Assembly (NCBI RefSeq): GCF_000177675.1
Contig: NZ_ADGX01000038.1
Span: forward strand, 1 to 64,000
Direction: 5' to 3'
Source of the DNA: Parafrankia sp. EUN1f
Lineage (GTDB): Bacteria > Actinomycetota > Actinomycetes > Frankiales > Frankiaceae
Length of the DNA stretch: 64,000 nt
Shown piece by piece: positions 38,273 to 45,582 of this stretch (its first letter is position 1; the number at the start of each line of letters is the position of its first letter). The notes beneath the pieces were generated by a model. That model was not told where the DNA came from. It did no database searches and saw only the letters and a list, made by a program, of their open reading frames with translations. The translations under genes were made by a program, and so were the position numbers.

Positions 38273-38313
38273 AGATTGCATCAAACCATATTGCGCACAA
38301 TCTAATGATGCAA
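38273..38313. promoter_or_regulatory. OhrR operator region
   Basis: Two overlapping inverted repeats are present: AGATTG (38273-38278) with CAATCT (38298-38303), and TTGCATCA (38276-38283) with TGATGCAA (38306-38313). They fill the gap between ohr and ohrR, so oxidation of OhrR should switch both genes. Confidence 0.7.
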
Positions 38314-38784
38314 GAGATGTCTGCTACTGTCGGTGGCGTGGCGGAACGCCTACCCCAGCTGGAGCTGGGCAACCAGCTCTGCTTCGCGCTGTACGCGGCG
38401 AGTCGGGCCGCGACCCGTGCCTACGGGCCTGAGCTGGCCGAGCTCGGCCTCACCTACCCGCAGTACCTCACCATGCTCGTGCTGTGGGAGGCGGACGCAC
38501 CGCTCGCGGTCGGTGACATCGGCGCCCGGCTGCACCTCGACAGCGGCACCCTCACCCCGCTGCTCAAACGCCTCGAGGATCTCGGCCTGGCCACCCGCAC
38601 CCGCGACCGGGCGGACGAGCGCCGCGTCCTCATCGCCCTGACCGAGCCCGGGCGCGAGCTGCGCGCCCGGGCGGCGGAGGTCCCACTGCGCCTCTTCCAG
38701 CGCTACGGCATCGACATCGACACCGCCCAGAAGCTCATCCGAGACCTGACGGCGCTCACAGAGTCAATCCAGGCATCGACCTGA
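38305..38784 (+). CDS. ohrR: MarR-family peroxide sensor OhrR
   Basis: The 159-residue protein has the MarR winged helix (LTYPQYLTMLVLWEADAPLAVGDIGARLHLDSGTLTPLLKRLE, then RDRADERRVLIALT) and the reactive cysteine in LGNQLCFALY. No second sensing Cys is obvious, so it is probably the one-Cys type oxidised by organic peroxides with a small thiol such as mycothiol. Three starts are possible: ATG 38305, ATG 38317 and GTG 38338. The last places the sensor at Cys15, as in characterised OhrR, and clears the operator. Confidence 0.92.
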   Translation: MMQEMSATVGGVAERLPQLELGNQLCFALYAASRAATRAYGPELAELGLTYPQYLTMLVLWEADAPLAVGDIGARLHLDSGTLTPLLKRLEDLGLATRTRDRADERRVLIALTEPGRELRARAAEVPLRLFQRYGIDIDTAQKLIRDLTALTESIQAST

Positions 38785-39059
38785 CGCCAGGCCTTGACCT
38801 GAGCTGCCGCCTCGTTCTCAGACGTCGGTCTCGTCGGCCGCGCTGGCCTCGCGGGCGGCCTGGCAGAGGATGATCGCGGCGCCCAGCGTGCCCATCGGCG
38901 AATCGGCGCGCCGTGTCCAGGCGAACGGTGAACGACGACAGAAGAGCACCGGAATCGTCGTGGGCGGCCCGAAACTGGCCTTCGCTCGCACCCTGAAGAT
39001 CGACCGGCCGAGGTTGATCAAGGTCGAGCAGGGGAAAATCCTCATTCCGCGTTTCCGTC

Positions 39060-39431
39060 GACGAGAAGCTGGCACGCGCGCAGACCGCGGCGATCCTGTC
39101 CGCCCTCGCAGATCCGGCCGCCGAGGAACACGCCGGCAGGGCCGTCGAGGTCTACACCGGCACCGGCCAGGCTGGAATGCTCGGCGGCTCGTTCAACGCC
39201 CTCGCACGCAGCTACCTGCACCGTCCCGAACCGGACCCGGAGCGGGCCGCCGACGCTGCCCGCTCCGCACTCGACGCTGTCGGGGCGCAGCGAACGAGCT
39301 GGGTCGCGGACGTGTCCGCGCAGATGTGGCGGCAGTTGGACGCCCGCTGGCCGACGCTGGACGCCGTCCGGGAACTCGGCCACCTCGTCGAGGCGGGCCG
39401 CCGGAACACCCTGCCATCCACTGATGTCTGA
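39060..39431 (+). pseudogene. Possible C-terminal remnant of a larger regulator
   Basis: In one forward frame the DNA reads as ordinary coding sequence (DEKLARAQTAAILSALADP, then AVEVYTGTGQAGMLGGSFN, AADAARSALDAVGAQRTSW and HLVEAGRRNTLPSTDV before a stop). It has no start with a ribosome site upstream. The helical Ala/Leu-rich pattern resembles the C-terminal repeats of XRE-type regulators, but this is a weak call. The surrounding DNA (38785-39059 and 39432-39789) shows no gene; a 7-bp hairpin lies at 39724-39747. Confidence 0.35.
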
Positions 39432-39789: not shown

Positions 39790-41400
39790 ATGAGCGGTGC
39801 TGGCGTGAGCAGGCCACGCGAGGATGCGATAAGGGACGCCCTGGCGCTCCGTCTCGATCTTGTCGAAAAGGGCCTGAGATGCCTGGCGACCGAGTATCGG
39901 ATCCAGAGTGGGGTCGGGGCGGGTGGCCGTATAGATATTCTCGCGAGGGACTCTGATGGCTGTTACGTGATCATCGAGTTGAAGCGCACTGACTCTGCGG
40001 CGCGAACTGCCCTGCACGAGCTGCACAAATACGTGGAACTCTTCCGGCGGGAGAGGGGGCTCGGTGATGCCGACCTGCGTGTTGTCGTGGTGGCGGTCGA
40101 GTGGCACGAACTCCACCTGGCATTTAGCCAGGCGGCTCGCGAATGGTCTGCTGACCTTCGAGGGTACCGCCTCGTGTTGGAGAGTGACGGCGTGACGCCA
40201 GCCGCTGTCGAGCAGATGAAGCCGTTTTCGGAAGCGACCGTGCGCAGCCTGACACCGGTGCAGCTTCTCGTTCAGTCCAGAACCGGTGACCTCGATGCTG
40301 TCTGGCGGTGGATGGTCGAGAAACTCCGGGCGTTCGGCGCCCGCGATTTCGTCGGATTCGACGTCACTCACCCCGTCTACGACAACGGAATATATCTCGT
40401 TCTCGGCCGTATGAATTCGGTTCTGACGGGCCAGTTGAGTCGGGTGGCGGGCGGTCGCGGGATCTTCGACGGTGAGTTCGCGCGCGGCGAGGCTGCGGTT
40501 GGCATCTCGGATGCCCCGCCGGGCTATGAGACGGAGTACGAGGCGCTGGTGCGGCTGTGCTCCTCCCCGGTTCCATTCGTTCTGGAAAAAGGCCACCCCC
40601 ACGCCCTCTCGCAGCTGGTCAGTGATCCCGACTGGTCGGTCGGAGCGCCACGCCGTACCGGTGTGTACGAGGATGAGCTGATCTTCCCGAAGGAAGACCT
40701 CGTTCTCGATTCCTCGGCGGGAGGGCTTTCTGACGTCAAGTTCACCGGTGTGGCGCGCGCGGATCACGCCGCGCGATGGACGCGCTGTCTCGAACGCATC
40801 GATTTCGCCCTCTCGGCAAACCCGACGTGGGCCCCCATCGTCGCGGCGTGGTGCCAGGAGTTGGCGGATCGCAGCGCGAGCACCAATCTGCTCGCGCATG
40901 TCTACAATCCCTGTGACTTTCCAGCGACAGTGGCGTTTGGGTGGCCGGGGCGCATCAACGACTTCATACCGATGCTGCGGTGCGTCGCCGCCGTGCCAGA
41001 TCAGCCGCGCCGGTCTCTATACGGCGGACTCATGGCCTACGACAGGGGCATGGATCCGCCCAGTGCCTTTGAACTGTCCTTCGGCACTGTGGAAAAATGG
41101 GTCATCGCTCGCAACGCTGGCCTGGCCTGGCAGCTGGACGAGCACTTTCTGCGCCTACTCGGGCTGAGGTACGCCGTTTTCGAGGTGATCGGCGGGCAGA
41201 CGTCGCGCCGCTTTCTCGACATGGAGGGCGGTGCGCTGGTCCGGCGGGTGCCCGCGGCATTCACCGGTGGGCCTGGTACCTTCGACGAGTGGCTCGATCG
41301 GCATGAACCACCGCTGGCGGGCGACCGGGCCGATGATCGAGGCGCGGCACCGATGGCAGAGCACGGTGGGTGCCTGTTCGGTCACCGCCGACGGCCGTGA
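39790..41400 (+). CDS. NucS/PD-(D/E)xK nuclease-domain protein with large C-terminal region
   Basis: The product of about 536 residues starts with an endonuclease NucS-like domain: LEKGLRCLATEYRIQS, GRIDILARDSDGCYVIIELKR (motif D-x(n)-E-x-K of PD-(D/E)xK nucleases) and TALHELHKYVELF. The remaining 370 residues are not recognised; they contain no helicase or ATPase motif. The start follows GAGGAG very closely, so it is not certain. Composition is less GC-biased than the metabolic genes around it. It stands alone among decayed genes, as defence or mobile-island genes often do. The role could be DNA repair or restriction of foreign DNA. Confidence 0.8.
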   Translation: MSGAGVSRPREDAIRDALALRLDLVEKGLRCLATEYRIQSGVGAGGRIDILARDSDGCYVIIELKRTDSAARTALHELHKYVELFRRERGLGDADLRVVVVAVEWHELHLAFSQAAREWSADLRGYRLVLESDGVTPAAVEQMKPFSEATVRSLTPVQLLVQSRTGDLDAVWRWMVEKLRAFGARDFVGFDVTHPVYDNGIYLVLGRMNSVLTGQLSRVAGGRGIFDGEFARGEAAVGISDAPPGYETEYEALVRLCSSPVPFVLEKGHPHALSQLVSDPDWSVGAPRRTGVYEDELIFPKEDLVLDSSAGGLSDVKFTGVARADHAARWTRCLERIDFALSANPTWAPIVAAWCQELADRSASTNLLAHVYNPCDFPATVAFGWPGRINDFIPMLRCVAAVPDQPRRSLYGGLMAYDRGMDPPSAFELSFGTVEKWVIARNAGLAWQLDEHFLRLLGLRYAVFEVIGGQTSRRFLDMEGGALVRRVPAAFTGGPGTFDEWLDRHEPPLAGDRADDRGAAPMAEHGGCLFGHRRRP

Positions 41401-41727
41401 ACTGTGGTGTACCGGCAGCGGCTACCGGGACGAGATGCTGGCCGGTTTCGACGTCGAGCAGACCGCGGAACGGGTCACCGTCCGGGCCTGGCTCGCCTTC
41501 GGCCCGGACGGGCCGACGTCCTTCGGTACGGGGCCGGTGCGGACTTTGCCGGACGGGTGCCGCCTGGGCAGGATGTACCGCCAGGCCGCCAGGCCGCCAG
41601 CCGCCGGTGGAGCACTGTGGTGTACCTCGACCAGCCCCTCGGCGGACGTCCGGTGGTCGACGTCGGCATCCCCGAACCCGACGGTGCCGGGCGGGCCCGC
41701 AGAGCCTGGCTCGCCGAGCGGGAATGA
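41333..41727 (+). pseudogene. Small hypothetical gene with internal frameshift
   Basis: From ATG 41333 the frame reads HRWQSTVGACSVTADGRELW and MLAGFDVEQTAERVTVRAWL. Near 41580-41615 the plausible coding frame changes, and the continuation VVYLDQPLGGRPVVDVGIPE to the stop at 41727 is in another frame. The switch lies in a repeat (CCAGGCCG) prone to slippage. The product is a short actinobacterial hypothetical protein, not recognised further. It overlaps the end of the nuclease gene by 68 bp. Confidence 0.4.
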
Positions 41728-41757
41728 CCGCGCGGCGACGGCGGTGGGACCGTTGTG

Positions 41758-41791: not shown

Positions 41792-41964
41792 GTGTCACTT
41801 TGTTGATCTTGAAGGTCGGGGGTCGAAGCGCGGGCACCGGGGTGGACGGGGCACGCGGAGTGAGTCGCAGGGCCGGGGCAGGCCCGTGACACTGGAAGGG
41901 TTCCTACCGGGTAGGGCTCATGGCACCGGCGACCGGTGCCGGCGACGAGAACCTGGGAGTGCCG

Positions 41965-45582
<3,618 letters not shown>

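What the first reader, a model, noticed from the sequence alone, without database searches (positions are those of the whole stretch)
39790..41400. Stand-alone NucS-like nuclease with an unknown 370-residue partner domain
The PD-(D/E)xK motif with GRIDILARD and IELKR is clear, but the rest matches nothing I know. The gene lies among decayed genes on lower-GC DNA, typical of a defence or mobile island, and is not the chromosomal mismatch-repair NucS, which is much shorter.
Basis: partly seen in the sequence, partly recalled or inferred. Interest (0 to 1): 0.52.

Follow-up and report, generated by a model that had tools for sequence, protein, structure and literature searches.

The report
Mobile NucS-type nuclease, unknown partner domain
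This soil actinobacterium carries a rare, travelling DNA-cutting enzyme fused to an unrecognised second half; its relatives often sit beside known antivirus systems, and a sister species keeps a CRISPR system at the very same spot, so it is most likely an undescribed phage-defence protein rather than a repair enzyme.

Summary
ORF 39790-41400 (+) encodes a NucS-type PD-(D/E)XK nuclease domain (Pfam NucS_C, residues 12-103) followed by ~370 residues with no Pfam match. It is not the host's mismatch-repair NucS, which lies elsewhere in the genome and belongs to a different clade. It belongs to a real, undescribed family of ~510-660 aa proteins: 19 aligned members from Actinomycetota, Alphaproteobacteria, a cyanobacterium, a gammaproteobacterium and prophage contigs. 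Nuclease motifs are invariant; the C-terminal half is very divergent.

The family is rare, mobile and defence-associated. Members adjoin SPARTA (TIR-APAZ + short Argonaute), a DRT2-like reverse transcriptase, type I R-M, PDC-S51 and PDC-M09. Some move as a 2-kb module with no other gene, and two are cargo in contractile-tail prophages. In the window the gene sits between marR and putA; a same-genus genome holds a type I-E CRISPR-Cas system in that interval.

The window's copy has lost its last ~20 residues through a rearrangement, so this allele may be impaired, although the body of the gene shows purifying selection (dN/dS 0.20). Best explanation: a stand-alone anti-invader nuclease with a C-terminal recognition module. 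Function is inferred, not shown.

The parts
39790..41400 (+). CDS of the NucS-type nuclease fusion protein (alternative start GTG 39787); homologous to relatives up to about 41312
39820..40095 (+). PD-(D/E)XK nuclease domain (Pfam NucS_C, PF01939)
   Evidence: fold match to EndoMS/NucS
39934..39984 (+). catalytic core: D49 (39934-39936), E63 (39976-39978), K65 (39982-39984), invariant in all 19 aligned sequences
   Evidence: aligned to the EndoMS active-site stretch
40225..41310 (+). C-terminal half of about 365 residues without Pfam match; predicted alpha/beta with a ferredoxin-like first part; proposed sensor/recognition module
41300..41312 (.). rearrangement junction: relative to G004 about 1.1 kb is missing here and the gene's native 3' end is replaced
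41300..41739 (+). remnant of a neighbouring gene (open over 306 aa in G001), read partly out of frame by the end of the ORF
38785..39407 (.). variable segment with no counterpart in G004 (about 140 bp there), small ORFs without Pfam match
38305..38784 (+). left flank of the variable site: MarR-family regulator
   Evidence: conserved flank
41920..45582 (+). right flank of the variable site: proline dehydrogenase/aldehyde dehydrogenase (putA)
   Evidence: conserved flank

Best explanation
A single-gene, horizontally moving anti-invader (anti-phage or anti-plasmid) nuclease. The N-terminal NucS-type PD-(D/E)XK domain is the DNA-cutting effector; the fast-diverging C-terminal half recognises the invader (a protein, a DNA structure or a DNA modification) and licenses or directs cutting, so that no modification enzyme is needed to spare the host. 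Shown: the nuclease fold match and invariant catalytic residues, a separate family with its own C-terminal half, mobility as a unit, association with defence loci, and a shared defence hotspot. Inferred: catalytic activity, the role of the C-terminal half, and the anti-phage outcome.
For: NucS_C domain with NucS fold at Z 13.7. All 19 aligned sequences keep E35, D49, E63, K65, R72, K80-Y81; only G413 and G458 are invariant beyond residue 105. Neighbours: SPARTA TIR-APAZ (E=0) and short pAgo (1.8e-217) directly downstream in Rhizobium sp. C4 (L043); DRT2-like RT (1.3e-124) in Sulfitobacter (L045), an RT also following the gene in L052; type I R (E=0) and S subunits and PDC-S14 in L042; PDC-S51 and IIG-like methylases in L046; PDC-M09A/B in Nocardia (L036). 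72 hand-picked neighbours from 19 loci gave 118 PADLOC families at 1e-8, against 13 for 69 control genes from 14 stretches of five contigs that carry relatives. Same-site evidence: the marR-putA interval holds Cas3e, Cas8e, Cas7e, Cas1e, Cas2e and CRISPR repeats in G005. Mobility: a 2.0-kb, 99% identical module with the nuclease alone in two rhizobial loci with unlike flanks; prophage cargo amid portal, neck, protease and sheath genes. Patchy: 2 of 6 own-genus genomes, 3 of 297 in the Rhizobium order and 3 of 298 in the Nocardia order, seeds included. No methylase among the nearby window ORFs scanned. Purifying selection, nuclease dN/dS 0.09.
Against: No activity data. Not every neighbour or locus looks defensive: of 20 neighbour proteins scanned singly, 9 had no PADLOC hit, among them all those chosen from L047 (2), L049 (1) and L028 (1). 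Four large ORFs of the 30-kb G001 insert and one G004 ORF had none either. The control is not matched for plasmid versus chromosome, covers five genomes, and PADLOC counts are inflated by several models hitting one protein. The C-terminal fold is unresolved (pLDDT 65), so 'sensor' is a guess. The window's own copy has a replaced C-terminus.
Confidence: 0.62

Rival explanations
1. A modification-dependent (type IV-like) restriction enzyme: the C-terminal half reads modified bases in phage DNA and the NucS domain cuts nearby. (A specific form of the best explanation.)
For: Stand-alone nuclease without its own methylase among the nearby window ORFs and in the 2-kb rhizobial module; repeatedly beside R-M and other defence genes. 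Nuclease-domain fold rows include restriction enzymes (PaqCI Z 10.1, MspJI Z 6.5).
Against: No match to a known modified-base reader in Pfam; the fold rows concern only the common nuclease core; the C-terminal fold is unresolved.
Confidence: 0.2
2. A DNA repair or mismatch endonuclease, i.e. an accessory NucS/EndoMS paralogue acting on mismatches, uracil, abasic sites or branched DNA.
For: The nuclease domain is closest to EndoMS/NucS. A long NucS homologue from Antarctic metagenomes (DV-NucS, 58.8 kDa) cut uracil and abasic sites and degraded single strands after long incubation (PMC10140301, passages and section 14).
Against: The NucS N-terminal DNA-binding domain is absent: the nuclease begins near residue 11. 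The host has its own NucS. The family is rare, mobile, prophage- and plasmid-borne, and defence-linked, unlike a housekeeping gene.
Confidence: 0.12
3. A competition gene of mobile elements (for example superinfection exclusion or an inter-plasmid nuclease) rather than a host defence gene.
For: Cargo in two closely related prophages; plasmid copies in Rhizobium, Acetobacter and Pseudoalteromonas near rep, transfer, integrase or transposase genes.
Against: Chromosome-type defence-island copies and the CRISPR-occupied hotspot in the sister genome. The two roles overlap biochemically.
Confidence: 0.2
4. In this particular genome the gene is a dying relic: the rearrangement that replaced its C-terminus has inactivated it. 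(Compatible with any function of the family.)
For: Homology to G004 stops at about 41312 and about 30 foreign residues follow. Decayed copies occur elsewhere: G029 remnant, Micromonospora L038 and N. anaemiae L041 broken.
Against: 507 codons are open and constrained (dN/dS 0.20); only the last predicted helix is hit.
Confidence: 0.4

Closest known systems
NucS/EndoMS mismatch endonuclease (Pfam PF01939; PDB 5GKE, 2VLD)
   Same: Same PD-(D/E)XK nuclease domain by sequence (E 1.3e-12) and by predicted fold (Z 13.7)
   Different: No N-terminal DNA-binding domain; the nuclease is at the N-terminus with ~370 unrelated residues after it; separate group from the host's NucS and 22 other chromosomal-type NucS; scores far below the NucS equivalog cut-offs (52.7 against 216, 24.5 against 252)
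PADLOC candidates PDC-S18 and PDC-S11
   Same: Weak match of the nuclease motif (E 2.4e-6 and 3.9e-5)
   Different: Only about 42 and 59 residues match, out of 365- and 347-position profiles; the C-terminal half is not covered
Shedu (SduA) stand-alone defence nuclease
   Same: Works like: single-gene PD-(D/E)XK nuclease with a further module; nuclease-core fold row at Z 7.6 (8PS5)
   Different: No Shedu model among PADLOC or Pfam hits at E<=1; here the nuclease is N-terminal, whereas the matched SduA stretch is residues 220-393
DV-NucS cluster 2 (Antarctic Dry Valley metagenomes, PMC10140301)
   Same: Unusually long NucS homologues, some over 500 aa, with nuclease activity reported
   Different: Described as extended N-terminally, the final 200 residues corresponding to the nuclease; sequences were not compared here

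Membership tests
NucS/EndoMS (mismatch-repair NucS) | NucS_C PD-(D/E)XK nuclease domain with D...E-x-K | tested here: met
   Pfam 48.2 bits over cut-off 24; D49, E63, K65 invariant
NucS/EndoMS (mismatch-repair NucS) | N-terminal DNA-binding domain before the nuclease | tested here: not met
   Nuclease starts at residue 11-12; NCBIfam matches only model positions 129-214 of 250 and 105-178 of 224
NucS/EndoMS (mismatch-repair NucS) | Groups with chromosomal NucS | tested here: not met
   19 long forms are one side of a branch (96/94); host NucS L117 with 22 others on another (99/98)
NucS/EndoMS (mismatch-repair NucS) | Mismatch cleavage helped by the sliding clamp | not testable with these tools
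   Needs biochemistry
Anti-phage defence gene | Found repeatedly in defence islands | tested here: met
   SPARTA, DRT2-like RT, type I R-M, PDC-S51, PDC-M09 next to relatives; 118 against 13 PADLOC families in controls
Anti-phage defence gene | Patchy distribution and horizontal mobility | tested here: met
Anti-phage defence gene | Protects against phage or plasmid | not testable with these tools
   Needs phage challenge
Shedu (SduA) | Match to Shedu/DUF4263 sequence models | tested here: not met
   None among Pfam and PADLOC hits at E<=1
Shedu (SduA) | Same overall fold outside the nuclease core | tested here: inconclusive
   8PS5/8PS4 rows cover only residues 5-129; the C-terminal model found no clear match
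Type II restriction-modification | Cognate methyltransferase encoded beside the nuclease | tested here: not met
   None among the nearby window ORFs scanned; the 2.0-kb rhizobial module holds the nuclease alone
PADLOC PDC-S11 / PDC-S18 | Full-length match to the candidate's profile | tested here: not met
   Only the nuclease motif aligns

The most novel reading that the evidence does not exclude
A new, widespread single-gene immune nuclease family: a NucS-type mismatch- or branch-cutting nuclease domain recruited away from repair and joined to a previously unclassified recognition module that senses invader replication intermediates or phage proteins, sometimes travelling as one cassette with SPARTA or a DRT2-type reverse transcriptase.
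Probability: 0.35. Interest if true: 0.65.

Novelty: new variant of a known kind. Interest (0 to 1): 0.48.

Why it matters
It would add a family to the single-gene defence nucleases and show that the NucS nuclease domain, known from mutation avoidance, has been reused for immunity. The NucS paper (PMC5290159, passages read) reports the NucS nuclease region in other domain architectures without giving them a role in those passages; this family is such an architecture with a testable function. The marR-putA interval also looks like a swap site for immune systems in this genus.

Tried and rejected
Housekeeping NucS: rejected, because the host's NucS is elsewhere and clusters apart. ORF artefact: rejected, because of the constrained orthologue. 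Type II R-M partner: no methylase among the nearby window ORFs scanned. Conserved two-gene operon: the ~300-aa ORF before the prophage copies is a different protein from the 285-aa ORF before the Nocardia copies, neither with a Pfam hit, and L031/L049 share the nuclease alone.

C-terminal fold: two AlphaFold models (mean pLDDT 66.8 and 65.3, 12 sequences each). Foldseek on the C-terminal model gave no PDB or BFVD match with E<=0.001. VIA rows up to Z 7.5 (ferredoxin-like designs, HP0184, viral origin-binding domains) lie in the range that the tool calls uninformative; one SpoIIAB row, Z 6.6, for the second part was not pursued. The C-terminal profile had no PDB sequence match better than E 0.26. 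Absence of a match does not show a new fold. The CRISPR neighbours in G005 were first read by eye, then confirmed by profiles.

Literature: searches with 'NucS domain-containing' (0 papers); NucS + anti-phage + nuclease (3); DUF91 (51, 20 listed); EndoMS + NucS + domain architecture (1); Shedu terms with NucS (4); defence island + NucS + others (26, 20 listed); PDC-S11 (2); NucS + defense island (2); NucS with antiphage terms (834 holding any two terms, 12 listed, none of the 12 with NucS); PADLOC/PDC-S (17, 8 listed). The NucS mentions opened in PMC12715929 and PMC12755741 were a software option and a gene annotation. No paper describing this family was found in these searches; subscription journals are mostly not held.

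The first tree was discarded because the host NucS row was read in the wrong frame; one search repeats it with that row corrected and four rows (L082, L111, L020, L025) dropped as long branches. The control set lost one of 70 ORFs (a 2193-aa one) that I left out for length. Ten neighbour proteins scanned were not among the 72.

Full report
Observation. The window holds an intact reading frame at 39790-41400 on the + strand. Its first 103 residues match Pfam NucS_C (E 1.3e-12), and no other Pfam family passes its cut-off. NCBIfam NucS models match only the nuclease part and far below their cut-offs. A PDB profile search with the 19-row alignment finds only EndoMS and NucS at E<=0.01, aligned over the nuclease stretch. 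GC3 of the gene is 0.74 against 0.88-0.96 for five other genes of the window. An orthologue at 90% identity lies at the same place in one same-genus genome, G004. Counting substitutions between the two gives dN/dS 0.20 over 507 codons, 0.09 in the nuclease and 0.25 in the rest. dS is 0.27 for this gene but 0.077 for putA and 0.13 for marR, so its history may differ from that of its flanks.

Correction to the reported limits. Homology to G004 ends at about 41312. There G004 has about 1.1 kb more, and the window continues directly into the middle of a neighbouring gene that is open over 306 aa in G001. The last ~30 residues of the window's ORF are therefore not native, and the end of the last predicted helix is lost. 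The allele may be impaired; relatives elsewhere are also found decayed (G029 remnant, Micromonospora L038, Nocardia anaemiae L041).

Not the repair NucS. The same genome has a second NucS_C gene on another contig (G000:C129, 122.5 bits, open frame of 304 aa), with a long stretch before the nuclease as in NucS. In a tree of 48 nuclease domains the 19 long forms fall on one side of a branch with support 96/94, while the host NucS joins 22 other chromosomal-type NucS (99/98). The long form has no room for the NucS N-terminal domain.

The family. Full-length relatives of about 510-660 aa were found in Nocardia, Nonomuraea, one further genome of the Nocardia order (G1023), Rhizobium, Novosphingobium, Caulobacter, Sulfitobacter, a Hyphomicrobiales MAG, Acetobacter, Pseudoalteromonas, Desmonostoc and three IMG/VR contigs. 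In the 19-row alignment 16 columns are invariant: 14 lie within the first 105 residues (including E35, D49, E63, K65) and two, G413 and G458, in the C-terminal half. An effector held constant with a fast-changing second half is what a nuclease plus sensor would look like; that reading is inference. Some relatives (L027, L079) carry an extra C-terminal stretch with two Cys pairs.

Rarity and movement. Long forms occur in 2 of 6 genomes of the own genus, with one further remnant (G029) among the 97 relatives searched; in 1 of 396 of the phylum sample, the window's own, the other 17 matches covering only the nuclease part; in 3 of 297 genomes of the Rhizobium order, seed included; in 3 of 298 of the Nocardia order, two of them seeds and one of those broken; and in 1 of 194 of the cyanobacterial phylum, the seed. 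Two rhizobial loci share a 2.0-kb, 99% identical segment that holds just this gene, plus a 0.47-kb piece, in otherwise unlike surroundings. Two Nocardia species share 2.9 kb at 98%, and Sulfitobacter and an IMG/VR contig share 3.7 kb at 92% that includes a reverse transcriptase. In L050 and L051 the gene lies between neck and head-protease genes of a contractile-tail prophage, at 77% identity between flanks of 96% and 87%. Plasmid copies lie near rep, transfer, integrase or transposase genes.

Defence association. Directly downstream in Rhizobium sp. C4 is a complete-looking SPARTA pair, TIR-APAZ (E=0) and short pAgo (1.8e-217); in Sulfitobacter a DRT2-like reverse transcriptase (1.3e-124); in a Hyphomicrobiales contig type I R-M genes; in Novosphingobium PDC-S51 and IIG-like methylases; in Nocardia PDC-M09A/B. 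PDC stands for 'phage defence candidate' (PMC11514479, passages). For 72 hand-picked neighbours of 19 loci PADLOC returned 118 families at 1e-8, among them Pycsar cyclase and Hhe; for 69 control genes from 14 stretches of five contigs that carry relatives, 13. Families are redundant, and the control covers only five genomes, so this is a strong tendency, not a measured rate. Of 20 neighbour proteins scanned singly, 9 had no hit, including all those chosen from L028, L047 and L049.

The site itself. In the window the gene lies between marR and putA. In G001 the same flanks are 30 kb apart; four large ORFs of that insert have no PADLOC hit. In G005 the contig with marR ends 130 bp after the marR flank, just past a CRISPR repeat, and the contig with putA starts in the same repeat and runs through Cas3e, Cas8e, Cas7e, Cas1e, Cas2e and a 61-nt-period array up to the putA flank. 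The contig join is inferred from the shared repeat. So one interval holds this nuclease in two genomes, CRISPR-Cas in a third and a large insert in a fourth; in G002 and G003 the left flank differs.

Mechanism. Most likely the NucS domain cuts DNA when the C-terminal half meets its target, as in other one-gene defence nucleases; no methylase was seen beside it in the window or in the 2-kb module, so self-protection must come from recognition. Whether the target is a phage protein, a replication structure or a modified base is open. The C-terminal structure could not be resolved. DV-NucS, a long metagenomic NucS homologue, has reported uracil, abasic-site and single-strand activity (PMC10140301), which shows that long NucS relatives can be active nucleases, but its architecture is described as different.

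Verdict. A real, undescribed (in the searches made), mobile family, best explained as a single-gene defence nuclease; a new variant of a known kind. Function is inferred from the company it keeps.

Noticed in passing
L151 1-10900 (G005:C2) and L154 3604-3620 (G005:C1 end): A type I-E CRISPR-Cas system with arrays occupies the marR-putA interval in a same-genus genome; the site looks like an immune-system swap site.
   Followed up: yes
L149-L150 (G001:C47:153000-184700): About 30 kb insert between the same flanks, with large ORFs (1239, 1046 and 754 aa); four ORFs scanned had no PADLOC match; content unexplained.
   Followed up: partly
L036 6456-7310, L037 7085-7939, L039 1440-2294: A 285-aa ORF sits about 50 nt before the nuclease gene in three Nocardia loci and is shared with it; no Pfam match for the L036 copy; it contains the string EYDGGYWH, which recalls Vsr/DUF559-type nucleases (recall only).
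   Followed up: partly
L026 6825-7661: In Nonomuraea an RNase_T-type exonuclease (E 1.1e-14) is encoded upstream of the nuclease gene.
   Followed up: no
L043 and L049: Rhizobium sp. C4 carries two different full-length members of the family.
   Followed up: no
L027 7944-9797; L079 1483-3465: Some relatives have an extra C-terminal stretch with two CxxC-like pairs, possibly a zinc ribbon.
   Followed up: no
L031 8789-10285: Weak Lamassu LmuA match (2.2e-10) in an ORF about 2.2 kb downstream of a rhizobial copy.
   Followed up: no
G000:C318:28825-29769: The window's own genome has a Cas1-like gene (41% identity to the I-E Cas1 of G005) elsewhere.
   Followed up: no
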